Shown here: positions 1 through 12,888 of the stretch, piece by piece | Layout of the letters: every line of letters begins with the position of its first letter | Position numbering within the stretch: position 1 is the stretch's first letter | Origin: Nitrospinae bacterium RIFCSPLOWO2_12_FULL_45_22 | Lineage (GTDB): Bacteria > 2-12-FULL-45-22 | Direction of reading: 5' to 3' | DNA length: 12,888 bases | NCBI GenBank assembly: GCA_001803565.1 | Contig: MHDQ01000291.1 | Coordinates: 1-12,888, forward strand | The notes under the pieces: model-generated | Database searches by the model: none | Told to the model about the DNA's origin: nothing | Seen by the model: the letters and a program-made list of their open reading frames with translations, nothing else | Translations under genes and position numbers: made by a program

Positions 1-262
1 TATACCCTTGTGGGGTGATAATCCCCCCCCTACCTTGCCTTTTAGCGTTTTCAAGTTCTTTAATCTCTCTTTGAGAAAGATCTATCCCCATACTCCTTAG
101 ATTCCAGGGGGTAAAGATAGGGGTTTTTATTATTACCTTGCAATCAATCTTCCCTGTATTCCCCTGACCAAGACCATGTCCAATGACAGGCACTTCTCGC
201 TGTCGTCGGGTCATATCAGGATCGAATCTTACAAAGTTATAGGGATTAATGAAAAAAGGCAT
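1..262 (-). CDS. Large RAMP-superfamily (Cas7-like) subunit, N-terminal fragment, cut by window edge
   Basis: The reading frame opens with ATG at 262-260 and stays open for 87 codons to the left edge, so only the N-terminus is visible. The start overlaps the csx19 stop by one base (TAATG), a typical translational-coupling junction, which supports this start. The protein begins MPFFINPYNFVRF and continues with a GHGLGQGNTGKI stretch and a KTPIFTP strand. A PYNFV opening, then H..G....G.I and a TP strand, is what I know from the large RAMP proteins of the TIGR03986 family, found in type III-D-like operons as an extra Cas7-type backbone subunit. The canonical YIPGSS-KG loop would lie beyond the edge. 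A run of eight C at 23-30 (G on the coding strand) lies near the edge and could hide a frame error. The family call is moderately secure; catalytic state cannot be judged. Confidence 0.7.
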   Translation of the reverse strand, partial: MPFFINPYNFVRFDPDMTRRQREVPVIGHGLGQGNTGKIDCKVIIKTPIFTPWNLRSMGIDLSQREIKELENAKRQGRGGIITPQGY

Positions 263-849
263 TACCTTACCTCTCCTTCGTAAAGTTTCACGGGCCTATA
301 GAACTTATGCTCGATTAACCTACCTTCCTGGTCTAAATCCCTCATAACATAACTGTATATAATAAGTCGGCATCTATAGATCTTTTTAGGGTCGCTTACC
401 TTCAAAGGATAGGAGAGAAACCTTGGTATTTGTCCTTCATACCATTCATCGGGTTTATCGTTGGTGCTTTCCCCCCAGAGATAGATATCAATGGGGTCGT
501 TTTTAGATATTTCTTTGGTATTTTCGTTGGGGAAGAAATCTTTTAAGGCTCCTAAAATGGTATCTTTATCGGTTAAGAGAAAGATGTGATAACTCTTGTC
601 ATGATGGCTTTCGGCTTTATGCCATCTGCATTCGGCCTCTGCTCCAAAAATCCTCACCTTATCCCACACTTCTGGGGTAGTCTCTCCTCCATTGAGAACA
701 ATCCTTTTCTTGGTTTTATCATAATTAAAGAATTCGAAGAGAATGCGTGCAGCACTTTCCAGGATAATGTATTGGAAAGAGGTTATGTCTGCCACTCGCT
801 CAATAATATCATTGAGGCTATCTACATAATTAAAGGTCACCTTACTCAA
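262..849 (-). CDS. csx19: Csx19, type III-D CRISPR accessory protein
   Basis: A 195-residue protein with no obvious nuclease motif. It carries the pattern I associate with Csx19 (the TIGR03984-type protein of III-D loci): RIFGAEAECRW near residue 67, DIYLWGE near 120, a WYEGQIPRFLSYPL segment near 137-150, and a C-terminal HKFYRPVKLYEGE. Its biochemical role is not established; in III-D it is encoded within the effector operon and is probably part of, or helps assemble, the crRNA complex. The start is TTG, overlapping the TGA stop of the upstream RAMP gene (TTGA); a GGAGG at 860-864 lies 10 nt ahead. A GTG three codons downstream is the alternative, but its spacing to a Shine-Dalgarno is worse. 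The position between a Cas7-like gene and the large RAMP gene fits subtype III-D. The family call rests on recalled motifs and context, not an alignment. Confidence 0.75.
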   Translation of the reverse strand: MSKVTFNYVDSLNDIIERVADITSFQYIILESAARILFEFFNYDKTKKRIVLNGGETTPEVWDKVRIFGAEAECRWHKAESHHDKSYHIFLLTDKDTILGALKDFFPNENTKEISKNDPIDIYLWGESTNDKPDEWYEGQIPRFLSYPLKVSDPKKIYRCRLIIYSYVMRDLDQEGRLIEHKFYRPVKLYEGEVR

Positions 850-1976
850 ACTAGCTTATCCTCCGGTATGTTTTCCAAAAAATAGTCCTTACTCATTTCA
901 TGTGGTAAAGTGTAGACAGAGTTAATGAAGCCGGTATCATCTTCAGCACTCCAGAGCTTCTTTAGTTCACCGAAAAGGGCCTCCTTCTGCTCCGAAGTTA
1001 CAAACTTATAGGTATGCCTGAAGCCATTGGATATAATGGGTGGACAATGGGAAAGGTTTATCTCCTCCGTGCCCATAAAATCCTTATGCCAATACCTATT
1101 ATCATTTATCAGCTTGCCAACACCCATCAACTTCCCATCAGGTGGTTTGTATCGCCCAAAGTAGGTGATAGAGATTGATTCTATCTCACCTGATACCTTA
1201 CCCAGGCCCCTTGATTTTCCAAAGCCTAACTTCACTATTTGATCCTTAAAGTCATCAAAGATGTATCCCAGTAAGCCTAGTTGCCATAGTTCAAAGGTGG
1301 TAAGGAATATGTCGTTAAAACTGAAAACTTTATTCTCTTCTTCCACTTCATAGTTAAAGAGGACACCTGACTTTGCACTACTGGTAAACCTATCTATCCC
1401 TACCCCGTGCCTCCTGGGAAGCCTTACAAACTGGTTGCTATAGGTAGGGGCACTGGTATAGTCACTATAACCATCTGGAATCTCTATCCTACTTTTCAGA
1501 AAATTGCATCCGAAGAGTTTGCAGATCGGACAAGCATCCCTGTAAACTTTATAAGAATCCAGATCTTCCTTTATGTATTCCTTTCTCAGGATAAACTTAT
1601 CAGAACAGGAAAGGTCGTCCCCAATGCTTGATCTTTTTGCTCTTCCCTGTTTATCTTTCTCTATCTTAGAAAAGGGATTGCAGGTACCATCAGTAGTGCC
1701 TTTAAGGGTTCTGGCAATCCTTTCTGCATAGCTCCTTATAACTCCTTTCAATGACGAGCCTGGAATATAGGGTACAACCCTATCATTTCGCATGGTCCTT
1801 ACAAATCCTATGGAAGGAAGGTCCTTTTTGTCTCTGACATTGTAAAATCGCATATAATCATTCAGGATATTTCTCTTTTCTAAGCTTTCAGAATCGAGAT
1901 CTTGTTTTATTAATAATGGGCCTTCAGTCTTTATCTTAAAAACTATCCTACATTCATTGAGAGCAATTTTAAGCAT
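846..1976 (-). CDS. Cas7-like RAMP protein, probably non-cleaving backbone subunit
   Basis: A 376-residue RAMP-superfamily protein. The glycine-bearing loop PYIPGSSLKGVIRS sits at residues 69-82, a CPICKLFG zinc-type motif at 149-156 (with C99 and C124 as possible further ligands), RHGVGIDRFTSSA at 189-201, and the C-terminal glycine-rich LGFGKSRGLGKV loop at 250-261. These are the marks of Csm3-type Cas7, which line the crRNA and flip out target bases. In Csm3 an Asp about 12-15 residues before YIPG cleaves target RNA. Aligning the VR of this protein to the same VR in the neighbouring 280-residue Cas7 puts Ser55 at that place, so this subunit is probably catalytically dead or plays a Csm5-like capping role (inference). 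It also has about 40 extra N-terminal residues and a ~100-residue C-terminal extension. A strong GAGGAGGG precedes the ATG, and the gap to the upstream gene is 12 bp. Confidence 0.85.
   Translation of the reverse strand: MLKIALNECRIVFKIKTEGPLLIKQDLDSESLEKRNILNDYMRFYNVRDKKDLPSIGFVRTMRNDRVVPYIPGSSLKGVIRSYAERIARTLKGTTDGTCNPFSKIEKDKQGRAKRSSIGDDLSCSDKFILRKEYIKEDLDSYKVYRDACPICKLFGCNFLKSRIEIPDGYSDYTSAPTYSNQFVRLPRRHGVGIDRFTSSAKSGVLFNYEVEEENKVFSFNDIFLTTFELWQLGLLGYIFDDFKDQIVKLGFGKSRGLGKVSGEIESISITYFGRYKPPDGKLMGVGKLINDNRYWHKDFMGTEEINLSHCPPIISNGFRHTYKFVTSEQKEALFGELKKLWSAEDDTGFINSVYTLPHEMSKDYFLENIPEDKLV
860..864 (-). promoter_or_regulatory. Shine-Dalgarno that decides the csx19 TTG start
   Basis: GGAGG on the minus strand lies 10 nt before TTG 849-847. 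It is inside the last codons of the upstream RAMP gene, and the TTG overlaps that gene's TGA. It favours TTG over the GTG three codons further in. Confidence 0.5.
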
Positions 1977-1988
1977 CTGACCCTCCTC

Positions 1989-2831
1989 TCACTTTATGTC
2001 CGGGAAAAAGGGCTTTAGGGAATTCTTGATAAAATCCTTTATGCCGATTTTATCTTCATCGGCTATTTTCCCCTCCAGGAGATAACCTGCCACCTTTCTT
2101 TTGTCTCCTTTAAAGTCTATCATCGAGACCTTTGCACTATCTTCCGACTTATCTTCCAACTTGCACCTACCTGTACCCCTGGAGGTAAGCCCCCCTATCC
2201 TTGTCCCGTCAAGGAGCTCCCTGAGACCAATAGCTGCAAGAGCCAAGTCTTTATCATTGGGGTTTTCAATGGCTATTCTGAGATTGAATGTATGGTTAAC
2301 GGGTAAGACCTCATAGTCGTACTTCACCCCTTCTACTGCCGTTCCGGTATCCCTATCTATTCCTACCCCATCTCTGATTTCCCTATCTTCTGTATATCCA
2401 CTATCAGGGGTAAGGTCATCTACAAAGAATCTTGAACCGAGATAAGGAAAGCCAAAGAGGTGGCAGGTATCACAGAGGGGTCCTCCTACTCCTAAGTCGT
2501 TTCCATCCTTGGTCTTTCCAGTTGTTATAATACTCAAAATCTCATCTTCTTTATCCTTTTCTCTAAGGGCATTTTTAAATCTTTCGCTGCATTCATCCTG
2601 GCTAAAAAGCGTACAGGTCCTAAAAGGGCTGCCTAGGGCTTTTGCTATCCTTTCTACCGTGCTTCTGAAGACCCCTTTGAAGGAAGAACCAGGGATATAA
2701 GGTCTACCATCATTGTATCTCACAATGGTTGAGTCGGTTTCGGGTGAACTCTCCCCACTACCTATATGTAAGGGGGTAAGGAGTACTATTCCCCCTTCAA
2801 TAATATATCTCTTCTCTAATTCCCGAAACAT
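1989..2831 (-). CDS. csm3: Csm3-like Cas7, RNA-cleaving backbone subunit
   Basis: A 280-residue Cas7-family RAMP protein. The N-terminal strand TPLHIGSGE (19-27) is followed by Asp33, then RPYIPGSSFKGVFRS (43-57). Asp33 occupies the position of the catalytic Asp of Csm3 (D32/D33 in studied homologues), so this subunit should cut target RNA at 6-nt steps in the complex. LCDTCHLFG (119-127) together with C73 and C81 may bind zinc. RDGVGIDRDTGTA (153-165) and IGGLTSRGTGRCKL (212-225) are the usual thumb and glycine-rich segments. The C-terminal ~55 residues are charged and have no motif I recognise. The ATG has AAGGAG a few bases upstream, and the gene lies 21 bp after the small-subunit gene in the same operon. 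Recognition as Cas7 is secure; the catalytic claim is by motif position. Confidence 0.9.
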   Translation of the reverse strand: MFRELEKRYIIEGGIVLLTPLHIGSGESSPETDSTIVRYNDGRPYIPGSSFKGVFRSTVERIAKALGSPFRTCTLFSQDECSERFKNALREKDKEDEILSIITTGKTKDGNDLGVGGPLCDTCHLFGFPYLGSRFFVDDLTPDSGYTEDREIRDGVGIDRDTGTAVEGVKYDYEVLPVNHTFNLRIAIENPNDKDLALAAIGLRELLDGTRIGGLTSRGTGRCKLEDKSEDSAKVSMIDFKGDKRKVAGYLLEGKIADEDKIGIKDFIKNSLKPFFPDIK

Positions 2832-2852
2832 ATTATCTCTCCTTTTCTTCGT

Positions 2853-3239
2853 TTATTTTTTGTTTATCTGGTACCATCCTGACAAATAACCCATAAATTC
2901 CCTAGTAAGGCTAAGCCAGACGATCTCTCTGTTTAGTTTAGGAAAGGAGTTCATTATCTCATTACACCAATTATCTATATTGTTCTCCAAAATTTCCTTT
3001 ATCTGCTCTCCAAAATCTGTTGTTTTTTCTTTCCACTTTTTAATCTTGTCATCGAGGAACTCTAGGATAAAGGTCTTATCTCTTTTCAAGATAACTCGCT
3101 CTAGGCCTTTTATTTGGCTATCTTCTAATTTTTGATAAGCCTTTGTTTGTTCTATAATTCTTTTTGCTTCTTCTAAGAGGGTACCTGAAAGATCCGCCCT
3201 TTTCACCTTTATATTTATTATTAGCTTAGTATCTACCAT
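2853..3239 (-). CDS. Small helical subunit, Cas11-like (putative)
   Basis: A 128-residue, lysine- and glutamate-rich protein that looks nearly all alpha-helical after a short N-terminal strand (KLIINIKVKRAD). It has no cysteine cluster and no catalytic motif. Size, charge, predicted helicity and place among Csx10 and Cas7 genes fit the small subunit (Cas11; Csm2 or Cmr5 in other subtypes), which forms the inner filament that contacts target RNA and the Cas10 stalk. The C-terminal SLTREFMGYLSGWYQI resembles the aromatic tail region of small subunits only loosely. The ATG overlaps the csx10 stop by 7 bp (ATGGTAG), so translation is probably coupled. The assignment is mostly positional, because small subunits diverge quickly; a lineage-specific operon protein is the alternative. 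Confidence 0.6.
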   Translation of the reverse strand: MVDTKLIINIKVKRADLSGTLLEEAKRIIEQTKAYQKLEDSQIKGLERVILKRDKTFILEFLDDKIKKWKEKTTDFGEQIKEILENNIDNWCNEIMNSFPKLNREIVWLSLTREFMGYLSGWYQINKK

Positions 3240-4414
3240 AATTGAGTTCCTATATAATGGAAGGGATGGCAGGAAATTATCTCTCCAAAACCTTCATTTT
3301 TTTTGAAGCCTATGCCTTCTTTTTCAATTTTTTCCAAAACTCCTGTGAGTTCATCTATCTCATTATCTGTCAGTGTATTATTTGACTCGAATAGGAATAC
3401 AGAGCCCTTTGGGATCACTATCTCGTTATCCTTAGGTAACCTCCAGGCAGCATTCCATCCTGAAAGGACTCGACTACCTGTATAAAAAAGCTTTAGGCTG
3501 AACCTTTTTAATATATTGTGCTTAAATCGTTTATACAGTTCATCATGGTCTATATAAGAAAGGTATTGAAAATAGTCATTCATAATGATCACATCTGATT
3601 GAAGGTTAAGAGTGAAGTAGAATCTTTTTTCTATTCCAGCATTTCGTATGGCACGGTTTAATTTTTTAAGCCTATCACTTACACTATCTTCAGGGGGGAA
3701 TGAATCTTCCTCTGAAATTTCTTCCAGCTCTACCAATCCCATCCCTCGAGTTCTTCCGGTACCGAGATAGAACTTCTCTCCTCTTTTGAGGTAGCTATCC
3801 AATTGAGTATCAGGCATGATTACAGGACCAATAAAATATTGGCCCTTTTCTATAGCCTCCTTACTATAGAGGATCCCTGGTTTACTTGTTTGTAAAAGAT
3901 CAGAAATCTCATTATGGGCTATCTCTCTCTTTTTCGCAGTAATAGTTTCGAAATGGTCTCCAACTTGACAATAAAATCCCCCTATTGCCTCCATAGGGGC
4001 ACCACATTCCGGGCACTCATCCTCCATCTCACCGGTATATTCATACCTGAGGAACTCGATCAGAAAATCTTTTATGCCATGGTTTCGCCTGATGCCTTGT
4101 CTTTGTTTTTCAAAGCCTTTACTTGCCTTACATGTCCTTGAAGTGGCAGGAAGTATTTTAATCATTATCCCCATTGGAGAATCACCCTCCGGGTAAAGGT
4201 TTCCGAACCTTACAGAATTGCCATTAAATAATGACATGAAGTCTATATCCACTTCGGGATTTGAAAGCTTCTTATCCCTTATGTATCTATTAGCTAGATA
4301 ACCCCTCAAAACCGTCCCAGGAATATAATCTAGGGTTCGGTTTATATTGCCTTCATCCCTCATGCTTGAAATAGAGAGGGGAGATAGGGTCTTAACCCGT
4401 ATGTATCTCTTCAT
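3233..4414 (-). CDS. csx10: Csx10, Cas5-like RAMP subunit of type III-D
   Basis: A 393-residue RAMP protein matching Csx10, the subtype III-D Cas5 equivalent that holds the crRNA 5' handle near Cas10. Diagnostic pieces in order: TLSPLSISS near 9-17; TLDYIPGTVLRGYLA (27-41); SVRFGNLYPEGDSP (67-80), the Csx10 'rF.nlYP' segment; TSRTCKASKGF (91-101); a zinc-finger-like stretch with C134-x2-C137, C149 and H154; GILYSKEAI...GQYFIGPV (180-198); and the glycine-rich LGTGRTRGMGLVEL loop (217-230). A second RAMP-like half follows with SGSRVLSGW-type sequence and a final GIGFKKNEGFGEI glycine loop. ATG lies 10 bp after the upstream Cas7 stop, with GAGAGA as its Shine-Dalgarno. Because Csx10 defines III-D, this gene is the main basis for the subtype call. 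Confidence 0.9.
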   Translation of the reverse strand: MKRYIRVKTLSPLSISSMRDEGNINRTLDYIPGTVLRGYLANRYIRDKKLSNPEVDIDFMSLFNGNSVRFGNLYPEGDSPMGIMIKILPATSRTCKASKGFEKQRQGIRRNHGIKDFLIEFLRYEYTGEMEDECPECGAPMEAIGGFYCQVGDHFETITAKKREIAHNEISDLLQTSKPGILYSKEAIEKGQYFIGPVIMPDTQLDSYLKRGEKFYLGTGRTRGMGLVELEEISEEDSFPPEDSVSDRLKKLNRAIRNAGIEKRFYFTLNLQSDVIIMNDYFQYLSYIDHDELYKRFKHNILKRFSLKLFYTGSRVLSGWNAAWRLPKDNEIVIPKGSVFLFESNNTLTDNEIDELTGVLEKIEKEGIGFKKNEGFGEIISCHPFHYIGTQLW

Positions 4415-4424
4415 TTCTCTCTCA

Positions 4425-5129
4425 TTACTGGAGATTCCTTATAGATTCGGAAATCTCCTTTTCTTGAATCAGACTTCCATTTATTTTAGCCTCTTCTATT
4501 CGAGTCTCTATTACTCCAATACCTCTACTTTTTGCTCCTCCAAGCCTATCCATAAACTTTATGCTAGCCATTAGGAGAGCAAATTCGGCAGGAATAACCC
4601 CTTTAGGATTTTGAAGGGTTATTGTCCCATTTATTTTGCCCTTAAATACTAGCCAAGGGGAGCAGACTTCGGTAGTAAAGAACCTCTTAGGTCTTGTGAT
4701 CCTTAAAGACCGGCTAATCATATTGGCATTTCTCTTGTCTACCTGGAACATCTTTATATCATCTTCTGACAGGGGGATTAGAGAATCTTTATCTATTTCG
4801 GCATCATAAAAGTTGAATCTTCCTTCATGGAAAGGGGAACCAAAGATTTGGCATATGGCGCAGCAGTCTTCAATTCTTGCCTTCCTACAAGGGTTGTTCT
4901 GCCCGTAACAGGAAGAAGTTATTGAATACGTAAATATCATGGAAAGCTTCTCATAGTGATCCCTTAATCTGCCTTTGATAGAAGACCCAGGAATGTATAC
5001 CAATCCATCCCTTTCCCTCTTATCCCGTATAGTAGTCTTATCAAGGATGCCAGTAAGCCCTACTCCTGTCCCGATATGGAGAGGGCTTTTAAGATGAATT
5101 AAAAACTCAATTTCTACTCTATAATCCAT
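4425..5129 (-). CDS. csm3: Csm3-like Cas7, first backbone subunit after Cas10
   Basis: A compact 234-residue Cas7. KSPLHIGTG (14-22) leads to Asp30 in GILDKTTIRD, then LVYIPGSSIKGRLRDHYE (43-60). Asp30 lines up with the catalytic Asp of Csm3, so target RNA cleavage is likely. Cysteines C74, C81, C89, C90 and C93 surround a CCAICQIFGS motif (89-98), probably a zinc site. SRSLRITRPKRFFTTEV (139-155) and LGGAKSRGIGVIE (196-208) are the standard later Cas7 segments. The length equals that of a minimal Csm3 (about 215-250 residues), whereas the other Cas7-like proteins of the operon are longer. Only 5 bp separate its ATG from the cas10 stop, so it is surely co-transcribed. The family call is very secure. 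Confidence 0.92.
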   Translation of the reverse strand: MDYRVEIEFLIHLKSPLHIGTGVGLTGILDKTTIRDKRERDGLVYIPGSSIKGRLRDHYEKLSMIFTYSITSSCYGQNNPCRKARIEDCCAICQIFGSPFHEGRFNFYDAEIDKDSLIPLSEDDIKMFQVDKRNANMISRSLRITRPKRFFTTEVCSPWLVFKGKINGTITLQNPKGVIPAEFALLMASIKFMDRLGGAKSRGIGVIETRIEEAKINGSLIQEKEISESIRNLQ

Positions 5130-5134
5130 AGCTA

Positions 5135-6637
5135 TTACTCAATAAAGTCGTATATTTCAATTAGATCGAGTATAGGAGTGGAATATTCTCCATTTTCATC
5201 TTTCCATGGAAATTTATCCAAATTAAATTCTCTGGAAAAGTTATCTAACACTTCTCTTACTTTAGGTTTTAGCCTGGCCTTTAATAGGAGTAGTTCATAC
5301 ATTGCTTGTCCTTTGCCTTTGAATAAGGAATTATACATCTGTGCCAGTTTATTTTTTGGAAAGGGTATCTGTTTGAACCTCTCCACTTCCAGAAGAAGTT
5401 TAGTTAAATCGTCAGAATCTGGGAAACTGCTAAGCACTCTGTATGGTCTTTGGTAAAGTTTTACATATCCTTCCTCATAAGAAAGTTCTTTATCTCGTAT
5501 GTAATCCAATTCATTCGTGGAAGATGTTGTAATAAGGGCAAAATCCAGAACACTGGCATTCTCTTTTGGGGTGTTAGAATATAATCTGTTACTCAATTTT
5601 TTAGCTGATTTTAGCAGATCATCAGAAAAGGTAAACAACCTGAATAGGGGGAACTTCGAGTGAGCAATAACCACCCCCGCAGATATAGAGACTTCCATAT
5701 TCTTCTGAATAGTACTCAAATGAAAATTCTTACAAAACTGGTGGGCTACCTTAATCGCCCTATTACCAGGAACTAATACGATAACATCGTCACCCCCGAT
5801 TAAGACAAACTCAAAGGGATAATAGTTCTTTCCACTCTTAGGTATAGGTTTCATATTTTCAGCTACGGCTCTGAATATCTCTTCTTTGGTAATCCTTGAA
5901 ATTTCCAAACTGAATGTTGAAAATTCTTTCTCATTGTTAATTCCTTGTATCTTCTGGCCCATTCTGTTGCCATCGCAATATATTAATCCGATGTAATTAT
6001 CAGATTCTTCACCTATATCACCAATATCCTCAGGATTATCATATGCTATATTAACTGGCCAATAAGAAACAGGATTATTCCCCAACCATTGAGTAAAAGC
6101 ATTGTAAAGAATGTTTCTGCCTGAGATATTCCTTTTATACTCACAAGATTTGCATAAAAAGTCATCGCCTATTCTCTTGGATACAGGGTAAAGGCCACAA
6201 GATTTACATATTTTCGAATACGGGAGTTGATATAACTGAGAATTAATGCACTTTGACTCCTTGTTTTTTCTAAGCTTCTTCTCTCCACGCTCATTAACCT
6301 TGCCAAAACTTTGTATAAGCTCATCCTCAGCGGTCTCTTCTATGCTCCCGGTAATAGTGGCTGAGATAGACTCGTTTTCATATAGGGCTCTCTCCTCAAG
6401 AATAAATTTTTTGGCCTTGTCTTTATCCCCAAAGATGGCCTTTGCCGCTCCCCCAGCAGCATAAATACACCTTAAACCACCTGCACCTTCCACCCTCTGT
6501 TTAACCTCCTGGCTATTATTCAAGTCATTCAATATTGCACTTGCACCCCTTATCTCTTTCAGCTTATCAGTAGCGAAAATATAAGAGTGTATCTTATCAG
6601 TATCTAAGGAAACGAGATAAAGCTTTTCTTCCTCCAT
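5135..6637 (-). CDS. cas10: Cas10, HD-less type III-D large subunit with intact cyclase motif
   Basis: A 500-residue Cas10, short for the family because the N-terminal HD nuclease domain is missing: the protein starts almost directly in Palm1 (LYLVSLDTDKIHSYIF, 6-21; LKEIRGASAIL, 26-36). A zinc ribbon follows (C144-x2-C147 and C162-x2-C165). Palm2 begins at NYIGLIYCDGNRMGQ (214-228) and has the catalytic GGDD at 281-284 in FVLIGGDDVIVLVPG. The C-terminal helical domain runs from about 400. Cas10 senses target RNA bound by the crRNA complex and turns ATP into cyclic oligoadenylates; the intact GGDD predicts activity. Loss of the HD domain is typical of III-D and removes the ssDNase. ATG is preceded by AAGGAGTTAAAAGG, a clear Shine-Dalgarno. 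It is the first gene of the effector operon, 72 bp after the HEPN gene. Confidence 0.95.
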   Translation of the reverse strand: MEEEKLYLVSLDTDKIHSYIFATDKLKEIRGASAILNDLNNSQEVKQRVEGAGGLRCIYAAGGAAKAIFGDKDKAKKFILEERALYENESISATITGSIEETAEDELIQSFGKVNERGEKKLRKNKESKCINSQLYQLPYSKICKSCGLYPVSKRIGDDFLCKSCEYKRNISGRNILYNAFTQWLGNNPVSYWPVNIAYDNPEDIGDIGEESDNYIGLIYCDGNRMGQKIQGINNEKEFSTFSLEISRITKEEIFRAVAENMKPIPKSGKNYYPFEFVLIGGDDVIVLVPGNRAIKVAHQFCKNFHLSTIQKNMEVSISAGVVIAHSKFPLFRLFTFSDDLLKSAKKLSNRLYSNTPKENASVLDFALITTSSTNELDYIRDKELSYEEGYVKLYQRPYRVLSSFPDSDDLTKLLLEVERFKQIPFPKNKLAQMYNSLFKGKGQAMYELLLLKARLKPKVREVLDNFSREFNLDKFPWKDENGEYSTPILDLIEIYDFIE

Positions 6638-6671
6638 TCCTTTTAACTCCTTATTAAGAGTGATATTTTTG

Positions 6672-6700
6672 ATCCTAGGGCTCCTATGTCAGATTAGCAA
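6672..6700 (-). promoter_or_regulatory. Possible weak promoter for the cas10 operon
   Basis: On the minus strand a TTGCTA (6700-6695) and a TAGGAT (6677-6672) are 17 bp apart in the 72-bp gap between the HEPN gene and cas10. Each hexamer matches the sigma70 consensus at four of six positions, so this could start effector transcription independently of the HEPN/MNT pair. Read-through from the upstream genes is equally possible. Confidence 0.22.
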
Positions 6701-6709
6701 TTAGTGGTT

Positions 6710-7132
6710 TCATGAATATTCCTCTCCTTGTGCCTTTATTAGATTTTCTAACAGGTCTTCAGCCTCTTTGACGAATTCCTTTGCCTTTGCCAGTTGATTC
6801 ATCGCCTCATCTTCTGTTACCACTTTATAGTCTCCATAGTCAGCTTCTTCCCTCTCCCCTTTTGCATCCTGAATGATGCGGCTGGCGGTTCTATCCATAA
6901 GGCCCTCCTTTACAAAATGCCGGTTGAAGAGGGAGATGACTCCTGAGTGTTTTCTGCTATCCAACCCTTTTAGGGCAAGGAGGGCCCGCGCTGCCATAAG
7001 GATGGCATAATAGGAACGGCTGACAGAATCTTCAAATGCGCTAGATTCGAGAAGGATCTCGGCTGCCCGTATCTTCTCTTTAGCCTTACTCATGCGATAA
7101 CGGGCAAGACCGATCTGATGTTGTTCGATCAT
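6710..7132 (-). CDS. HEPN-domain protein, partner of the adjacent nucleotidyltransferase
   Basis: A 140-residue helical protein of the HEPN superfamily (PF05168-like, from pattern). The typical SRSYYAILMAARALLALKG helix spans 38-56, KHSGVISLFNRHFVKEG spans 61-77, and REEADYGDY lies at 94-102, equal to the family's R..ADY signature. HEPN/MNT pairs are known as toxin-antitoxin modules, with HEPN proteins often RNases. Here the RX4-6H RNase motif is not evident: R94 is followed by ADY rather than a His, so RNase activity is doubtful from sequence. The start ATG overlaps the MNT stop (ATGA), giving tight coupling. The next gene downstream is cas10 in the same direction. The C-terminus is a charged helix ending EGEEYS-like. 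The role as toxin, or as a CRISPR accessory factor, is inferred from family and place. Confidence 0.8.
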   Translation of the reverse strand: MIEQHQIGLARYRMSKAKEKIRAAEILLESSAFEDSVSRSYYAILMAARALLALKGLDSRKHSGVISLFNRHFVKEGLMDRTASRIIQDAKGEREEADYGDYKVVTEDEAMNQLAKAKEFVKEAEDLLENLIKAQGEEYS

Positions 7133-7476
7133 AGCGGGATACCTTCTCGTTCAATGTATTGGATAAATAGGGTTCTGAAATATCGATTTTTTCCATACTC
7201 CTCCTGGCTGTAAATCACAGGCGAGATATTACAATCATAGTCCAGATTAATATCAGCAGCCAAACCACAGATCTCTTCATGTATCCTCCAATCTTTCGAT
7301 TTTACTATTATCAATATGTCTATATCAGATTCCTGGTCAGAGTCTCCTCTCACTTTAGAGCCAAATAGCTCTATTTCCTGTAATTCATCGCCTAGAAGCT
7401 GTCTGAGCTGGTGGCTAAATAATTGAAGCCCCTTTCGTTCTTTATCGGTTAAAAATCTATCGTATCGATTCTTCAT
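7129..7476 (-). CDS. MNT-domain nucleotidyltransferase, probable antitoxin of the HEPN pair
   Basis: A 115-residue minimal nucleotidyltransferase. The catalytic core is visible: FGSKVRGDSDQESDIDILI at residues 38-56, that is GS-x2-RG with the metal-binding Asp51 and Asp53, and Asp81 as a possible third acidic residue. In characterised HEPN/MNT modules the MNT protein neutralises its partner, in some cases by adding AMP groups to a Tyr of the HEPN toxin; here DY and Y102 near the R94 motif of the partner would be candidate sites (inference). Translation starts at ATG 7476 with a GGAACGGAG element just upstream. It is the first gene of a two-gene unit and lies about 140 nt after a candidate promoter. 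The family call is secure; the physiological role is not shown by sequence. Confidence 0.87.
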   Translation of the reverse strand: MKNRYDRFLTDKERKGLQLFSHQLRQLLGDELQEIELFGSKVRGDSDQESDIDILIIVKSKDWRIHEEICGLAADINLDYDCNISPVIYSQEEYGKNRYFRTLFIQYIEREGIPL

Positions 7477-7764
7477 AATCTCCGTTCCTCATAACTATTT
7501 CCGCCCGATATTCAGGATGTATCTGCAACAGATGAGGGATGCCATTCTAAATTACTTCTTCCTCCATTTTAAAATACCTGATTCTACAAATTCTCTAGAC
7601 TCAAGGATATGACCTCCCTTGGCTATTATAACACTAATCTAAATAAAGGGAGTCAAATTAAAGACATGGCTAAACCCACCCCACCGAGTAGAGCCTTTAT
7701 AGGCAGGCAGAAAAGAGGGACACAATGGCTTGGCAATAAAACCAAAAGATTGCAAAAGTGAGAT
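7477..7764. other. Intergenic stretch between MNT gene and the unknown 310-aa gene
   Basis: A 288-bp non-coding stretch. It contains the candidate extended -10 promoter at 7625-7656 for the MNT/HEPN unit. No convincing terminator follows the unknown gene; GCAAT and ATTGC near 7733-7755 could form only a short weak stem without a clean T-run. I see no small ORF with a Shine-Dalgarno. Confidence 0.5.
7625..7656 (-). promoter_or_regulatory. Candidate extended -10 promoter for the MNT/HEPN unit
   Basis: On the minus strand the sequence TGTTATAAT (7633-7625) is a perfect extended -10 (TGnTATAAT). A TTGACT lies upstream at 7656-7651 but is 20 bp away, too far for an ideal -35, which is why an extended -10 matters. 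Transcription would start near 7617 and give a leader RNA of about 140 nt before the MNT start codon. Confidence 0.45.
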
Positions 7765-8697
7765 TTATCTGCTGGACCATTGCTGGATAACCCCTTTCTC
7801 CATATAGGGTAAGCCCAGGGTTCTTCTTACCTCGGAATGGATCATCTCTATCCTTAAGAGTATCAGGGCCTCTTCCTGGCCCATTCCAGTAGGGAAATTC
7901 TCCTTTTTATATAAAAGGTCTAGAAATTCTGCATCTACATAAGTGGGGAGGCTCCAGTAGCTAGCGGTACGGAGATGGCTGGGTAGACCGTGATGGGTGA
8001 AATAAATGGGTTCTGGGGCGCCAATAATCGTATCATGCAGCATGATATCACCTTTCGGGTCATGGAGATATATCCTGAGGGTAGATTTATCAATCCCTTT
8101 CGGGGTTAATTGCTCAAAGAGTAGGTATTCATTCTTTTCCTTAGCAGTGAGATCCAGGAGCTCATTCTGCCTGACCCAGAGTTGCTGCGCCCGGCATAAG
8201 ATGGCATTGGGTCTGGTAGCAATTCTCCTGGCATCAATAGGTATGATATGGGGTAGGAAAATCCGGGCCAGCCGGTAGCTATGTTTCAATTCCGTGATCT
8301 CCTGGCCTTTGCTGAAGATGGTCTTAAGCTCATGGCAGATATCCGAGTCGGGTGTACGTATAAGTTCTAGATATTCGTTAGCAAGCTGGGTGATAATTTT
8401 TTTCGAGGCCTTAGCTTCCCCTCTGGCAGAGAAATCTATCTGTTTGAGTTTTTCTAGAAATTCTCGGCCAGTGTTCCTATAGGTTCGGCCTATGATACGA
8501 AAATCCGTCGCTTCATCCCAGATGAGAAACTTTGCCACCGGACTCCGGGTAAAGCGCCAATCAGATGGGGCTTGTTTCTCCAACCCTTCTTTGATCCGAT
8601 AAATATGAGCTCTGGCATCCGCCTCGGAAAATTTGAAGCGATCCCTGGCCCTTTCGATAAGATGGGCTTCGGTCTTCTCAATGCTTATATGGGCCAT
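7765..8697 (-). CDS. Uncharacterised 310-residue protein in the CRISPR locus
   Basis: I do not recognise this family. The protein (310 residues from ATG 8697) is soluble by composition, with no signal peptide or membrane segment. It looks two-part. Residues about 1-90 have helices and strands with WRFTRSPVAKFLIWDE followed by RIIGRTYRNTGREFLEKL. A longer, mostly helical C-terminal part includes IDARRIATRPNAILCRAQQLWVRQ, a THHGLPSHLR His-rich segment, and RRTLGLPYMEKG at the end. No HEPN RX4-6H, PD-(D/E)XK, Walker A or GGDD motif is evident, and I see no CARF-type Rossmann glycine loop. A TTG two codons earlier (8703) is an alternative start; neither has a strong Shine-Dalgarno. It sits between the palindrome/array and the MNT/HEPN pair in the same direction, so a CRISPR-linked role is possible but unproven. 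Confidence 0.6.
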   Translation of the reverse strand: MAHISIEKTEAHLIERARDRFKFSEADARAHIYRIKEGLEKQAPSDWRFTRSPVAKFLIWDEATDFRIIGRTYRNTGREFLEKLKQIDFSARGEAKASKKIITQLANEYLELIRTPDSDICHELKTIFSKGQEITELKHSYRLARIFLPHIIPIDARRIATRPNAILCRAQQLWVRQNELLDLTAKEKNEYLLFEQLTPKGIDKSTLRIYLHDPKGDIMLHDTIIGAPEPIYFTHHGLPSHLRTASYWSLPTYVDAEFLDLLYKKENFPTGMGQEEALILLRIEMIHSEVRRTLGLPYMEKGVIQQWSSR

Positions 8698-8795
8698 CTT
8701 CAATTTCTTTTTCTTTAAAGTTGATTTATCCTCGCTTCCTGGCCTTCCAGTCTCAATAGAGGGTGGGAGCTGCTAAAATAAGGGAAAATAAGATT

Positions 8796-9014
8796 TTAAC
8801 CACAGATGAACACGGATAGATATAGATTGGGCCACGAAGGCACTAAGACACTAAAAAGCTCAAAGCTTAAAATGCAAAGTGTAAAATTAAGGTAATTATT
8901 CCTCAGCTTTGCACTTTTAGCTTTGCGTTTTACGTTTCCCTGGTGTCTTAGTGTCTTTGTGGCAGGGGAAGGGTAGCTGATTGATCCGTGTCCATCTGTA
9001 TCTATCCGTGGCAA
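8796..9014. repeat. Long imperfect palindrome, MITE-like intergenic element
   Basis: The two halves of this ~219-bp segment are inverted copies of each other. Left parts TTAACCACAGATGAACACGG, CACTAAGACAC (8841-8851) and AATGCAAAGTG have right-hand reverse complements ending CCGTGGCAA, GTGTCTTAGTG (8943-8953) and CTTTGCA. The centre is near 8891-8902 (GGTAATTATTCC). The whole would fold into one long hairpin in RNA or single-stranded DNA. Sequences of the type ACCACAGATGAACACGGAT with CACTAAGACACTAA are familiar to me as dispersed intergenic repeats in many environmental bacteria, so this is likely a non-autonomous, multi-copy element. No flanking target-site duplication is obvious. An open frame across it is a by-product of the palindrome, not a gene. 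Confidence 0.75.
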
Positions 9015-9101
9015 ATATTCATAAAGCTTTGTTTGGCTAAACTTTTACAAAAAAACTTTCTCTTTTTGTTACTGCTCACTCCTCACTGCTTTCTGCTCCC
9101 T

Positions 9102-9115
9102 CGGCCCTCAGGCCG
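9102..9115. other. Small GC-rich hairpin at the distal end of the array
   Basis: CGGCC-CTCA-GGCCG forms a perfect 5-bp stem with a 4-nt loop, two bases beyond the leader-distal repeat. On the array-transcribed (minus) strand it lies directly after the last repeat, so it could protect or help end the precursor RNA. It lacks a T-run, so it is not a standard intrinsic terminator. Confidence 0.35.
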
Positions 9116-9117
9116 CC

Positions 9118-10354
9118 GTTTCAATCCCGTATAAATCCGGTCTAGTCTTCCTACAAGTGGATAGAAGCTCTATAGGGGAGCTTATCGAAAAAGTTTCAAT
9201 CCCGTATAAATCCGGTCTAGTCTTCCTACGAAAGGAAGTTTATGGTAGATCCACTGATCTACCTAAGTTTCAATCCCGTATAAATCCGGTCTAGTCTTCC
9301 TACAAATGCACGCCAAGGGAGGAACAAAATATGTTTTACGAGTTTCAATCCCGTATAAATCCGGTCTAGTCTTCCTACTTAAAAAAAGCAGCGCTAGGCC
9401 AGATGAAAAAAATTGAGTTTCAATCCCGTATAAATCCGGTCTAGTCTTCCTACACTATTAGAATTAATTGAAAAGATATTCACTGAAAGTTTCAATCCCG
9501 TATAAATCCGGTCTAGTCTTCCTACATTCAATCCGCTCTAAGATGCTTATCCGTTTTTAAAGTTTCAATCCCGTATAAATCCGGTCTAGTCTTCCTACAT
9601 TTTTGACGTGGCGACAAACAAAATATCGGATTTTCTGTTTCAATCCCGTATAAATCCGGTCTAGTCTTCCTACTTAGGAAAAGCAGTAGGACAACATCTC
9701 ATCATTGAAAGTTTCAATCCCGTATAAATCCGGTCTAGTCTTCCTACCCCTTCAACTGATAAATAAAAATTTTTATCATCTTGAGTTTCAATCCCGTATA
9801 AATCCGGTCTAGTCTTCCTACTTTAGAAAGAAAGCAGAAGAGGCGGCTTTTTCTGATTTAGTTTCAATCCCGTATAAATCCGGTCTAGTCTTCCTACCAT
9901 AGACATTCCCACTTGGGTCACTTGTTATTTGTATTCTGGGTTTCAATCCCGTATAAATCCGGTCTAGTCTTCCTACAAAATCATATCATGTTCAGAATAA
10001 AAATACTGTCTTTTAAGTTTCAATCCCGTATAAATCCGGTCTAGTCTTCCTACGTGAGATAAATGAAACGGATAATTGTATATTTAGTTATAGTTTCAAT
10101 CCCGTATAAATCCGGTCTAGTCTTCCTACATAAATATAGCCGTCTTCAATGAGGCATTTCGGATGAGGTTTCAATCCCGTATAAATCCGGTCTAGTCTTC
10201 CTACGCATCTTTAACAACACTGTTGGAAGCAACAAAATAAAAGTTTCAATCCCGTATAAATCCGGTCTAGTCTTCCTACGTAAACCCCATGGGCAAACCA
10301 ATGCCTTATACTTGTGTGTTTCAATCCCGTATAAATCCGGTCTAGTCTTCCTAC
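9118..10354 (-). CRISPR. CRISPR array, 17 repeats and 16 spacers, type III
   Basis: A 37-nt repeat (plus-strand reading begins GTTTCAATCCCGTATAAATC and ends GTCTTCCTAC) occurs at 9118, 9193, 9267, 9342, 9417, 9489, 9562, 9637, 9711, 9785, 9861, 9940, 10017, 10093, 10168, 10243 and 10318. I find no mismatch among the copies. Spacers are 35-42 nt, most 37-39. On the minus strand each repeat ends ATTGAAAC, the usual 8-nt 5' handle of type III crRNAs, so transcription is probably minus, the same as the cas genes. The leader and its promoter at 10355-10584 agree, which makes the spacer at 10280-10317 the newest and the one at 9155-9192 the oldest. The repeat has only a weak internal hairpin (CCG/CGG). 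No cas6 for processing is in the window. The distal repeat is not degenerate, which is uncommon. Confidence 0.98.
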
Positions 10355-10397
10355 TGCACCCTCTTTTGAAGCTGATGGGATAAGGGTTTGAGATGCC

Positions 10398-10415
10398 CAT
10401 TCCGCTAACCTCCTT
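10398..10415 (-). promoter_or_regulatory. Consensus ribosome binding site and ATG inside the CRISPR leader
   Basis: On the minus strand AAGGAGG (10415-10409) is followed after 8 nt by ATG (10400-10398). Spacing and sequence are ideal for initiation. The frame from this ATG is open for 84 codons and runs into the array, stopping at 10146, with each repeat read as RKTRPDLYGIET. Whether it is translated is unknown; it may be a relic of an old gene start. Confidence 0.4.
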
Positions 10416-10437
10416 AGAAGAGAAAAAATTTATCCCT

Positions 10438-10466
10438 TTTATATCACTTTTTTTGTTATTTTTCAA
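10438..10466 (-). promoter_or_regulatory. CRISPR array promoter in the leader
   Basis: On the minus strand TTGAAA (10466-10461) and TATAAA (10443-10438) are exactly 17 bp apart in a very A-rich context, each matching five of six sigma70 consensus positions. Transcription would begin near 10430 and enter the first repeat (10354) after roughly 75 nt. Its direction agrees with the handle-based orientation of the repeat. Confidence 0.7.
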
Positions 10467-10537
10467 TAGCAAAAATACCATCCAAATACAGATCAGTTGC
10501 CGGTCTCCCATTTTTCCCGCTAACCTACCCCCCAAAA

Positions 10538-10556
10538 GGCGTATTTTTACTCCGCC
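10538..10556 (-). terminator. Weak hairpin after cas2, possible terminator
   Basis: On the minus strand GGCG and CGCC (10556-10553 and 10541-10538) flank an 11-nt loop and are followed by TTTT, starting 29 nt after the cas2 stop. The stem is only 4 bp, so at best it partly ends the adaptation transcript before the leader promoter. Confidence 0.25.
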
Positions 10557-10584
10557 CTTCCGAATTATGTAAACTTTGACGGTA

Positions 10585-10860
10585 TTAAATCACCACCAGT
10601 TCATCGGGAGGCTCTGACCCTTTCTGTCCATAAGACTCCCGGTTCCCTGCACACCTATGGCATAGGTAATAGATCTTGAGGCTGTCTCCTTCAGGATCAA
10701 TAATGGCCCGGACCTCCTGGATCATCTGCTGCAGATACTTTTCGTCCAGACTGCATTCAAAGACACTATATTGTACCCTGGTGCCATAGTCCTTTAAGAG
10801 GTCAGCCAGTTTATTTCTCCGCTTATCATCTATGATATCGTATGAGACCACCACAAACAT
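10585..10860 (-). CDS. cas2: Cas2, adaptation endonuclease-like scaffold
   Basis: A 91-residue Cas2. The N-terminal strand MFVVVSYDI carries Asp8, the family's metal-binding Asp, followed by R14-R15 of the first helix; GTRVQYSVFECSLDEKYL (26-43) and the LKIYYLC strand (61-67) complete the ferredoxin fold. A CHRCAG segment (67-72) is common in type I/III Cas2. Two Cas2 molecules bridge Cas1 dimers to hold the prespacer during integration; Cas2 nuclease activity is not needed for that. The ATG is 16 bp after the cas1 stop, and the product lies directly ahead of the leader. Length and motifs are normal, with no fusion. Confidence 0.96.
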   Translation of the reverse strand: MFVVVSYDIIDDKRRNKLADLLKDYGTRVQYSVFECSLDEKYLQQMIQEVRAIIDPEGDSLKIYYLCHRCAGNRESYGQKGSEPPDELVVI

Positions 10861-10876
10861 AATATCACAGTTGGGG

Positions 10877-11872
10877 CTATTCCAACAAAAAGGGAGTATA
10901 CAGTTCCCGGGAGCGAATAGTACGGGCTAGTCTATGGGCCTGACGCTGAAAAAGGGTACGAAAAGATATCTTCTCGCCCGTGAATGAGTCCTGAAAAAGC
11001 TCATTCATTCGTTTCTCGTATTGGGTAAAGTATTGCTTTAAGGATTCAGGTTTAAGGAGGAAACCACCATCGTCTGCTTCTTTAAAATCCTCAGGGGAGA
11101 GGACCCGGTTATTGAGCAAGAAAAGGGTGAATCTATCAACTATGGGGTGACGGAATTCCTCTACCATATCCAGGGCCAGGGAGGGCCTGCCATAATCTAT
11201 GCCATGCAGATAGCCGATATAGGGATCAAACCCGATGGCAAAGAGCAGGGATAGGATTTCACTGGTTATCAAGGTATAGCCGAAGCTCAATAAGGCATTA
11301 ACCGGGTCTCTGGGTGGCCTTCGGCTCCGGGTAGAAAAGGCCAACTCTCCCCGAAACATCCGGCCAAAGGCCCGAAAGTAAGTGGCAGTAGCCTGACCTT
11401 CAATACCTAAGAGGCTCGAAACCGGTAAATTATCCTTCAATCTCATGAGGCTCTGCTCCAACCCTTCGAGCTGGGCCGAGAAGTCTGACTCAGGATAATT
11501 TCTGGCATATCTCTTTATCAGGGCCCGGGCATTCTTTATCTTGGCCTCTACCAGGAGCCGGGCATGCCCTCTCTGAAATTCATCATCCAGGTATCTTTCG
11601 TATTGGGCTATGCGTAGTAAGATATTCTTAGACTCCGCCGGTGCCAGCCTCCCCCGGAACTTCCCTCTATGGGAAAGATAACATAGATCAATGCCCGAGT
11701 CCAAGAGAAAGGCCACGGCCTGCGAGGTTACTTGAACGTTCCCAAAGATAAGGAGCCGATCCAGGTTAATAGCTGGTATCTCGGCTATGGTCTCTTTCCC
11801 TTTGGTAATAATCAATCTCCGTGAGGTCTTCTTTACTACACTTCCCTGTTCAGTGATATAGATGGTTCTCAC
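10877..11872 (-). CDS. cas1: Cas1, spacer integrase
   Basis: A 331-residue Cas1 of full family length, which integrates new spacers at the leader-repeat junction with Cas2. The N-terminal beta domain ends near residue 85 (LLIFGNVQVTSQAVAFLLDSGIDL-type segment at 40-63). The catalytic helical domain has all expected metal ligands: Glu158 in LLGIEGQATATYF, His223 in IGYLHGIDYGRPSLALD, and Asp235/Glu238 in LDMVEEFRHPIVD. It is not fused to a reverse transcriptase or Cas6, unlike several type III Cas1 proteins. The start is GTG at 11872 with GGGGGAG a few bases upstream, and only 9 bp separate it from the stop of the primase gene, so the two are co-transcribed. Confidence 0.97.
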   Translation of the reverse strand: MRTIYITEQGSVVKKTSRRLIITKGKETIAEIPAINLDRLLIFGNVQVTSQAVAFLLDSGIDLCYLSHRGKFRGRLAPAESKNILLRIAQYERYLDDEFQRGHARLLVEAKIKNARALIKRYARNYPESDFSAQLEGLEQSLMRLKDNLPVSSLLGIEGQATATYFRAFGRMFRGELAFSTRSRRPPRDPVNALLSFGYTLITSEILSLLFAIGFDPYIGYLHGIDYGRPSLALDMVEEFRHPIVDRFTLFLLNNRVLSPEDFKEADDGGFLLKPESLKQYFTQYEKRMNELFQDSFTGEKISFRTLFQRQAHRLARTIRSRELYTPFLLE

Positions 11873-11881
11873 AGGCTCCCC

Positions 11882-12888
11882 CTACAGCTCTATTACCCAG
11901 ATCATTTTATCGCCTTTTTTCACCCGGGTTAAATTACCCAGGCTGGTAGGAAGAGAATCTATCTCTTTTGCTTGAAAGAGGCGAGTCAACTCTTCTTCAG
12001 TATCTCGAATCTTGAGTTCTATATCATTCCGGCTTTTCTTCATTGCTATATAGCTCTCCAGCAACTGCTCTACCAAAGGTTCTGGAGGCCTTTCAATAGC
12101 TGTTTCCAGGCCGGCCGCAGGGGCCGTAGTTTCTTGGTCGGGAGCAGGTACTTGCGGCTCTTGTGTAATTGCCGCATCAAGCTCCTTATCTTCAGGAGGT
12201 TCCAGAGCGGTATCCGGGCAGGAAATTCCGGTAGGCTCTTCCTGCTCTTGTGCCTTTATCTTAATAATGGTATCTGGATCGGCATAGAGAACCGGGGAGG
12301 GATAACCTTTTTCCGGTACCGGAAACTCGCAATAACAGCCGATACTGGGGGTAAGATCACTGAGCCATTCTCTGATCCGGGGGCAGCTAACTGGATAGGG
12401 CTTCAGGCGCTTTATCCAGCGCCCGGTCCTATTAGGATCATAATTAAGACAATGGCCAATAATTTGGTGGAGAGCTTGTTTGCCTGCCTTTCCCAGAAGG
12501 CCCAGGGTATGGAGCAGGGTTAAACGCTCATAATGGCCAAGTTCTTGCTCAGATTCGGCCTTCCGGGCCAGGAAGCGGATCACATTACATCGCTCTAATA
12601 CCCTCTTCACCCCCTCATTATCTTCTGAATCTTCTGGCATCTTGGGTGAGGGTAGCTTTTGGGCACGCAGAATCATACTGGCCTGCCGCAATTTTTCTGG
12701 GGAGATGAGTTCTAGCTGGGTCAATATTTCCAGTTGATTGTCATAGGGTTTACCGGCTGTATCAAGGAAAAGGGCACGTCTTTGATTTATCTGATGAATG
12801 CCTAAAGGTAGTTTTATCAAAGAGCCCAGGGCATCTTTGCTCACATAATCCTGTTTAGGAAAGATCTCCCAATGGATACCAGCCGGTG
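11882..12888 (-). CDS. CRISPR-associated primase-polymerase (CAPP-like AEP), C-terminal part, cut by window edge
   Basis: The frame is open to the right edge; 334 residues are visible and the true start lies outside. A GTG at 12844 is internal, because the residues before it, AGIHWEIFPKQDY, continue the conserved primase block EIFPKQ...LGSLIKLPLGIH...RRALFLD (visible residues 2-42). That block is the C-terminal edge of the archaeo-eukaryotic primase (AEP) domain as seen in TOTE-type and CRISPR-associated Prim-Pols; the metal-binding acidic motif I would be upstream. A helical domain follows with C100, C146, C168, C184 and C186 (HCLNYD, SCPRI, GCYCEF), a PriCT-2/PriL-like metal or Fe-S site by pattern. 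Then come an acidic, Pro/Glu-rich linker (about 212-275) and a coiled coil ending WVIEL. CAPPs are known beside cas1/cas2 and are implicated in spacer acquisition; the 9-bp spacing to cas1 fits. Confidence 0.85.
   Translation of the reverse strand, partial: PAGIHWEIFPKQDYVSKDALGSLIKLPLGIHQINQRRALFLDTAGKPYDNQLEILTQLELISPEKLRQASMILRAQKLPSPKMPEDSEDNEGVKRVLERCNVIRFLARKAESEQELGHYERLTLLHTLGLLGKAGKQALHQIIGHCLNYDPNRTGRWIKRLKPYPVSCPRIREWLSDLTPSIGCYCEFPVPEKGYPSPVLYADPDTIIKIKAQEQEEPTGISCPDTALEPPEDKELDAAITQEPQVPAPDQETTAPAAGLETAIERPPEPLVEQLLESYIAMKKSRNDIELKIRDTEEELTRLFQAKEIDSLPTSLGNLTRVKKGDKMIWVIEL

What the first reader, a model, noticed from the sequence alone, without database searches (positions are those of the whole stretch)
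11882..12888. Primase-polymerase of the CAPP type directly upstream of a stand-alone Cas1-Cas2 in a III-D locus
Seen: the frame runs through the window edge, carries EIFPKQ and LIKLPLGIH blocks and a five-cysteine helical domain, and ends 9 bp before cas1. Known: CRISPR-associated Prim-Pols are found next to cas1/cas2 and are linked to adaptation. Inference: the enzyme may copy or repair prespacers, or prime DNA synthesis on RNA-derived fragments, in a system with no reverse transcriptase fused to Cas1. Pairing with a III-D effector operon containing Csx10 and Csx19 is worth placing in the known diversity of CAPPs.
Basis: partly seen in the sequence, partly recalled or inferred. Interest (0 to 1): 0.7.

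Follow-up and report, generated by a model that had tools for sequence, protein, structure and literature searches.

The report
Reverse transcriptase fused to CRISPR primase-polymerase
The gene fragment at the window edge is the tail of a large CRISPR memory-making enzyme that joins a reverse transcriptase, a protein-docking repeat region and a primase-polymerase in one chain, and by sequence it keeps both DNA-making active sites, whereas the two such fusions tested so far had a dead primase-polymerase half.

Summary
In detail: 11882-12888 (- strand) is the C-terminal third of a CRISPR-associated primase-polymerase (CAPP) ending 9 bp before cas1-cas2, beside a 17-repeat array and a type III-D effector operon. 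The interpretation missed the main feature. The window stops at a 47-N scaffold gap. The rest of the scaffold gives one open frame of 997 codons: reverse transcriptase (RT, YADD) - TPR - Prim-Pol - cysteine-containing CTD - Mu-Gam-like tail, with cas6 upstream. So an RT is present, fused to the CAPP rather than to Cas1. RT-CAPP fusions are known (CART-CAPP; Zabrady 2021, 2023), but the two tested had an inactive Prim-Pol half, proposed to be general. Here every Prim-Pol motif residue is intact. Genome searches recovered 12 further RT-CAPPs in bacteria and archaea. All 13 keep RT YxDD, but the Prim-Pol half erodes to varying degrees: FPKQ is lost in ten, the catalytic acids in three; only this one and two relatives keep the whole set. 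All 70 unfused CAPPs keep the acids. Best reading: a two-polymerase adaptation enzyme turning RNA or ssDNA into prespacers, with Prim-Pol probably still working. A Prim-Pol domain kept only as scaffold is the serious rival. New variant of a known kind.

The parts
12683..12886 (-). C-terminal part of the Prim-Pol (AEP) catalytic domain: motif III Glu of EIFPKQ (codon 12866-12868) and LIKLPLGIH. The rest of the gene continues beyond the window on the same scaffold after a 47-N gap (12889-12935) up to about 14875: AEP motifs I and II (DID codon at 13163-13165, His codon at 13001-13003), TPRs, RT (YADD codon at 14234-14236); cas6 follows at scaffold 15008-15964
12248..12682 (-). CAPP C-terminal (PriCT-like) domain with five cysteines, four of them conserved across CAPPs
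11885..12070 (-). Mu-Gam/Sipho_Gp157-like TOTE tail domain of the same protein (stop codon at 11882-11884)
   Evidence: 4.1e-18
10877..11872 (-). cas1, 331 aa, not fused to an RT
10585..10860 (-). cas2, 91 aa
9118..10354 (-). CRISPR array: 17 identical 37-nt repeats, 16 spacers of 35-42 nt; read on the - strand the repeat ends in ATTGAAAC, so crRNA orientation matches the operon (orientation inferred from that handle)
7765..8703 (-). 312-aa protein of unknown family; a homologue sits in another RT-CAPP locus (L132)
7129..7476 (-). MNT-type nucleotidyltransferase of a HEPN/MNT pair
6710..7132 (-). HEPN partner of the HEPN/MNT pair
   Evidence: 5.6e-21
5135..6637 (-). cas10, 500 aa, with GGDD palm motif
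4425..5129 (-). Cas7/Csm3-like RAMP
3233..4414 (-). csx10 (Cas5_IIId), marker of type III-D
2853..3239 (-). small subunit, Csm2 of III-D type
1989..2831 (-). Cas7/Csm3-like RAMP
846..1976 (-). Cas7/Csx7-like RAMP
262..849 (-). csx19

Best explanation
The fragment is the C-terminal third of one adaptation enzyme: reverse transcriptase - TPR - Prim-Pol - cysteine CTD - Mu-Gam-like tail, co-directional with cas6, cas1 and cas2 next to a III-D CRISPR array. Shown by sequence: the domain order, the intact RT active site, the intact Prim-Pol motifs I-III and the adaptation setting. Inferred from the tested relatives: the enzyme binds Cas1-Cas2, its RT half primes and copies RNA or ssDNA fragments into DNA, and the product is handed to Cas1-Cas2 as a prespacer. 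Inferred and specific to this protein: the Prim-Pol half is still catalytic and takes a second job (priming the second strand on cDNA or ssDNA, or filling and displacing strands at the integration site), so two different polymerases act in one chain.
For: One frame spans RT (RVT_1 5.1e-27), TPRs, AEP-TOTE (5e-46) and Mu_Gam; PADLOC 'adaptation polymerase' PrimPol 7.3e-88 and CRISPR RT 3.8e-83. The same architecture occurs without any scaffold gap in relatives directly followed by cas1 (L058, L059, L061, L065, L068). Whole-gene match to the CAPP type A1 family over its cut-off. The AEP core matches Marinitoga CAPP crystal structures (5.1e-32), with DxD, SGxKGxH, ExFPKQ and LIKLPLGIH all present. 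The AlphaFold model of the sister L058 has pLDDT 84.8, with the RT half matching group II RT 6ar1 at Z 32.0 (rmsd 2.3, 289 aligned) and the Prim-Pol half matching MsCAPP 7nqf at Z 31.6 (rmsd 1.8, 219 of 219). CAPPs bind Cas1 and form a complex with Cas1-Cas2, and CART RT domains prime and copy RNA and DNA (PMC8211822, PMC10415136). Within the RT-fused group the motif set is kept here while most relatives have lost parts of it, which fits continued constraint in this lineage.
Against: In both tested CART-CAPPs the Prim-Pol half was inactive (PMC10415136). Ten of the 12 other RT-fused relatives have lost part of the Prim-Pol motif set, so it may be on its way to loss here too. Intact residues do not prove activity. 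A 47-N scaffold gap runs through the Prim-Pol domain. No in vivo spacer data.
Confidence: 0.62

Rival explanations
1. RT-only enzyme: the RT does all priming and copying, and the Prim-Pol half is catalytically silent, kept as a nucleic-acid or Cas1-binding scaffold, as in the tested CART-CAPPs.
For: CaCART-CAPP and GlCART-CAPP activity is solely from the RT (PMC10415136). RT YxDD is kept in 13 of 13 fused proteins, while Prim-Pol residues are lost to varying degrees in ten of them. In Myxococcota MAG.451 the fused Prim-Pol is fully degenerate and a separate intact CAPP stands next to it.
Against: This protein keeps every motif residue, as do L058 and L060; neutral decay would be expected to remove some of them.
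Confidence: 0.3
2. An ordinary TPR-CAPP with no RT: the scaffold gap wrongly joins a CAPP tail to an RT-bearing gene.
For: The only physical link between the halves is a 47-N gap.
Against: The frame is kept across the gap and one profile alignment runs through it (positions 2-485). The piece beyond the gap already carries RT, TPR and the first part of the AEP domain in one gapless frame, and gapless relatives show the same order followed by cas1.
Confidence: 0.05
3. A TOTE-type or mobile-element primase that lies beside the CRISPR locus by chance.
For: Pfam names the domains after TOTE systems, and TOTE-like helicase relatives exist on plasmids.
Against: No helicase. The nearest relatives are almost all directly beside cas1 and/or cas2, and the CAPP-specific model passes its cut-off.
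Confidence: 0.02

Closest known systems
CART-CAPP (CRISPR-associated RT fused to Prim-Pol; Caloramator australicus CCJ33120, Geobacillus lituanicus)
   Same: N-terminal group-II-like RT fused to Prim-Pol and CTD; beside Cas1-Cas2; RT motifs intact. The Caloramator RT structure 8bgj matches the model of the sister protein L058 (Z 20.8)
   Different: 997 codons against 713 aa: this one also has TPRs (and a Mu-Gam-like tail) and keeps every Prim-Pol motif residue, whereas the tested two have an inactive Prim-Pol half
CAPP_A TPR type (Marinitoga CAPP; NCBIfam NF040561)
   Same: TPR - AEP - cysteine CTD order, catalytic motifs, operon with Cas1-Cas2
   Different: this one has an RT in front of the TPRs and no Argonaute was found next to it; Marinitoga CAPP has no RT
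RT-Cas1 and Cas6-RT-Cas1 fusions of type III systems (Marinomonas; Vibrio vulnificus III-D)
   Same: a group-II-like RT, Cas6 and Cas1 act in one adaptation module with type III effectors, including III-D
   Different: here the RT is fused to a Prim-Pol; Cas6 and Cas1 are separate genes
UG10 reverse transcriptases
   Same: an RT with a fused primase domain (PMC8934634)
   Different: a different RT class, listed by PADLOC among DRT models; this protein scores far better to the CRISPR PrimPol and CRISPR RT models

Membership tests
CAPP (CRISPR-associated Prim-Pol, class A) | AEP catalytic core with motifs I (DxD), II (sxH) and III (hE) | tested here: met
   DID, SGWKGRH, WEIFPKQ; AEP-TOTE 5e-46; Marinitoga CAPP 5.1e-32
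CAPP (CRISPR-associated Prim-Pol, class A) | operon with cas1 and cas2 | tested here: met
   9 bp upstream of cas1, cas2 next
CAPP (CRISPR-associated Prim-Pol, class A) | curated family score (NF040561, cut-off 200 bits) | tested here: met
   411 bits for the whole gene; the window fragment alone, 188 bits, is under the cut-off
CAPP (CRISPR-associated Prim-Pol, class A) | primase and polymerase activity, Cas1 binding | not testable with these tools
   needs biochemistry
CART-CAPP | RT fused N-terminally to the Prim-Pol in one frame | tested here: met
   scaffold gap inside the AEP domain; gapless relatives
CART-CAPP | intact RT catalytic motif (YxDD) | tested here: met
   RYADD; YxDD in 13 of 13 RT-CAPPs
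CART-CAPP | inactive Prim-Pol half (hypothesis of PMC10415136, not a definition) | tested here: inconclusive
   all motif residues present; activity not testable; the Caloramator and Geobacillus sequences were not among the fetched loci
Type III-D CRISPR-Cas | Cas10, Csx10 and Csx19 effector operon | tested here: met
RT-Cas1 fusion | RT and Cas1 in one protein | tested here: not met
   cas1 is a separate 331-aa frame
TOTE conflict system | AEP fused to or beside helicase and endonuclease | tested here: not met
   no helicase or endonuclease match in the gene or its listed neighbours

The most novel reading that the evidence does not exclude
A single protein with two working DNA-synthesis active sites of different superfamilies (RT and Prim-Pol) makes both strands of a prespacer from RNA. 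This lineage keeps the state from which other RT-CAPPs have lost the Prim-Pol activity repeatedly, contrary to the idea that an inactive Prim-Pol is the rule.
Probability: 0.4. Interest if true: 0.75.

Novelty: new variant of a known kind. Interest (0 to 1): 0.58.

Why it matters
How type III systems turn RNA into double-stranded prespacers, and why RT-CAPPs keep a Prim-Pol half reported as dead, are open questions. This protein and its relatives give a graded series, from full motif set to complete loss, that makes the second question directly testable with a few purified proteins. They also show that RT-TPR-CAPP modules occur in several bacterial groups and in methane-metabolising archaea, and that RT-CAPPs are found with both III-B-type and III-D effector genes.

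Tried and rejected
A single-protein scan of genome contigs with the window fragment found nothing; the AEP alignment found 185 relatives, of which the best 80 were kept. Searching NF040561 in relatives mostly rang on what appear to be TPR repeats of unrelated proteins, so later searches used AEP and CTD only. The apparent separate RT next to CAPP in L067 is a frameshifted fusion and was counted as fused in the 13-protein table. The first RT tree held duplicate rows and its clade test was meaningless; it was rebuilt. The association of FPKQ loss with RT fusion is strong by simple counts (Fisher p 1.3e-6, with L067 then counted as unfused and the degenerate L094 fusion left out), but RT-CAPPs may share one origin (one clade not rejected, p-AU 0.79 for AEP and 0.174 for RT), only 2-3 phylogenetically independent pairs exist, and the sign test has no power; it is reported as a pattern, not proof. 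The array against its own genome gave no convincing self-target. A scan of viral contigs found 31 distant AEP relatives; their contexts were not examined. Caloramator and Geobacillus CART-CAPP sequences could not be fetched, so the residue state of the tested inactive Prim-Pols is unknown to me.

Full report
WHAT IS THERE. The window ends exactly at a scaffold gap: it is bases 1-12888 of a 16,115-base scaffold, and 47 Ns follow. Read on, the minus-strand gene continues in frame to about 14875, giving 997 codons including 17 unread ones. Pfam finds, from the N terminus: RVT_1 at residues 72-268 (5.1e-27), a short group II maturase match at 281-322, TPRs within about 376-476, AEP-TOTE at 503-731 (5e-46) and the Mu_Gam/Gp157-like TOTE domain at 936-997. 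Between the last two lies the cysteine-bearing CTD. Upstream on the same strand is cas6 (318 aa); downstream, 9 bp away, cas1, then cas2 and the array. The array has 17 identical 37-nt repeats and 16 spacers of 35-42 nt. Cas6, RT-CAPP, Cas1, Cas2 and the effector genes all read on the minus strand, and the ATTGAAAC end of the repeat puts the crRNA on that strand too. The effector operon is III-D by Csx10, Csx19, III-D type small subunit and Cas10.

IS THE FUSION REAL? The only weak point is the gap inside the AEP domain. Against a misjoin: the frame is kept, one CAPP profile alignment covers positions 2-485 through the gap (411 bits), the part beyond the gap already holds RT, TPR and the first AEP motifs without any gap, and gapless relatives have the same order directly followed by cas1 (L058, L059, L061, L065, L068). 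By alignment to them about 7-8 residues are missing, against 17 unread codons, which is ordinary for an estimated scaffold gap. This is my reading of the alignment, not a computed figure.

RELATIVES. An AEP alignment (A1) scanned against 84,980 species genomes gave 185 relatives; the best 80 were kept. Nearly all lie beside cas1 and/or cas2. L067 is split by a frameshift. The nearest kin of this protein is L059 in both the AEP tree (SH-aLRT 87) and the RT tree (99/96). A single origin of the fusion is not rejected in either tree (p-AU 0.79 and 0.174); it is not shown either.

ACTIVE SITES. RT: YxDD is present in 13 of 13. Prim-Pol: I scored 14 positions covering the three motifs, ExFPKQ, LIKLPLGIH and a motif tyrosine. 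Of 70 unfused CAPPs, 70 keep both motif I acids, the motif II His and the motif III acid, and 70 keep the Q of FPKQ. Of 13 RT-fused, only three have the full set (this one, L058, L060). Seven keep the catalytic acids but have changed FPKQ (to SH, DR, DR, NC, KE, MG, NY in the last two places), and three have lost the acids (L126 NxN, L094 ExE, L101 ExR). In MAG.451 (L094, the same contig as L049) a degenerate RT-Prim-Pol stands directly beside a second, unfused CAPP with the full set, as if the work had been divided. The scan patterns contain parts of motif II and of LIKLPLG but not FPKQ, so the FPKQ comparison is not built into the search, while the count of fully degenerate fusions is probably too low. 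Because the fused proteins may be one clade, the statistical link between fusion and erosion rests on few independent events (2-3 pairs).

STRUCTURE. The full-length sister L058, folded with 31 relatives, has mean pLDDT 84.8 (pTM 0.43, so domain placement is uncertain). Its RT half matches the GsI-IIC RT (Z 32.0, rmsd 2.3 over 289) and its Prim-Pol half matches the Marinitoga CAPP Prim-Pol with DNA (Z 31.6, rmsd 1.8 over 219 of 219).

MECHANISM. From the literature: Marinitoga CAPP primes and extends DNA, binds Cas1 through its part without the CTD, and self-associates partly through TPR and CTD (PMC8211822). The RT domains of CART-CAPPs prime and copy both RNA and DNA, and CART primase activity feeds Cas1-Cas2 integration (PMC10415136). 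The same paper found the Prim-Pol half inactive in both CART-CAPPs examined and proposed that this is common. Applied here: the RT would copy RNA or ssDNA; the TPR and neighbouring parts would dock Cas1-Cas2 (inference); the Prim-Pol, if active, would prime the second strand or fill gaps (inference). I give 0.62 to the combined statement and 0.3 to the RT-only rival.

NOVELTY. CAPPs and RT-CAPP fusions are published, so this is not a new kind. In the open literature I could search, the text describes CAPP-TPR and CAPP-RT as separate types (PMC8211822), and I found no description of a TPR-containing RT-CAPP; a supplementary tree may contain such members without comment. The distinctive points are the RT-TPR-Prim-Pol architecture spanning bacteria and archaea, the complete Prim-Pol motif set in this member, and the graded loss in others.

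Noticed in passing
window 7765-8703 (-): A 312-aa protein of unknown family (no Pfam match over cut-off; none in NCBIfam, PADLOC or PHROGs) lies between the array and the HEPN/MNT pair. None of 371 other genomes searched encodes a relative, yet a homologue (3e-34) sits between cas6 and cas2-RT-CAPP in the Desulfobacteraceae locus L132, which suggests a rare RT-CAPP-associated gene.
   Followed up: partly
window 6710-7476 (-): A HEPN/MNT toxin-antitoxin-like pair stands next to cas10 in the III-D operon; L132 also has an MNT relative near its RT-CAPP.
   Followed up: partly
L139 (G000:C231:6528-6615): A lone copy of the CRISPR repeat with adjoining array-end sequence, 87% alike over 95 bases, on another contig of the same genome; perhaps a remnant array end or an off-site insertion.
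   Followed up: partly
L094 4694-9869 (same contig as L049): Myxococcota MAG.451: an RT fused to a degenerate Prim-Pol (ExE, His to Arg, no CTD) is followed directly by an intact unfused CAPP, cas1 and cas2.
   Followed up: yes
L132 1464-3224; L065 12497-13717: Cmr1 genes near these RT-CAPP modules indicate III-B effectors, so the adaptation module pairs with more than one type III subtype.
   Followed up: partly
G000:C112 475-8994 (L023): A second CRISPR-Cas locus in the same genome, of type I-C appearance (my reading of the translations; Cas1 by profile), with its own cas1 and cas2.
   Followed up: no
L060 1521-4664: The Poribacteria RT-CAPP frame has about 300 extra N-terminal residues that look membrane-spanning (by eye); possibly a wrong start codon.
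   Followed up: no
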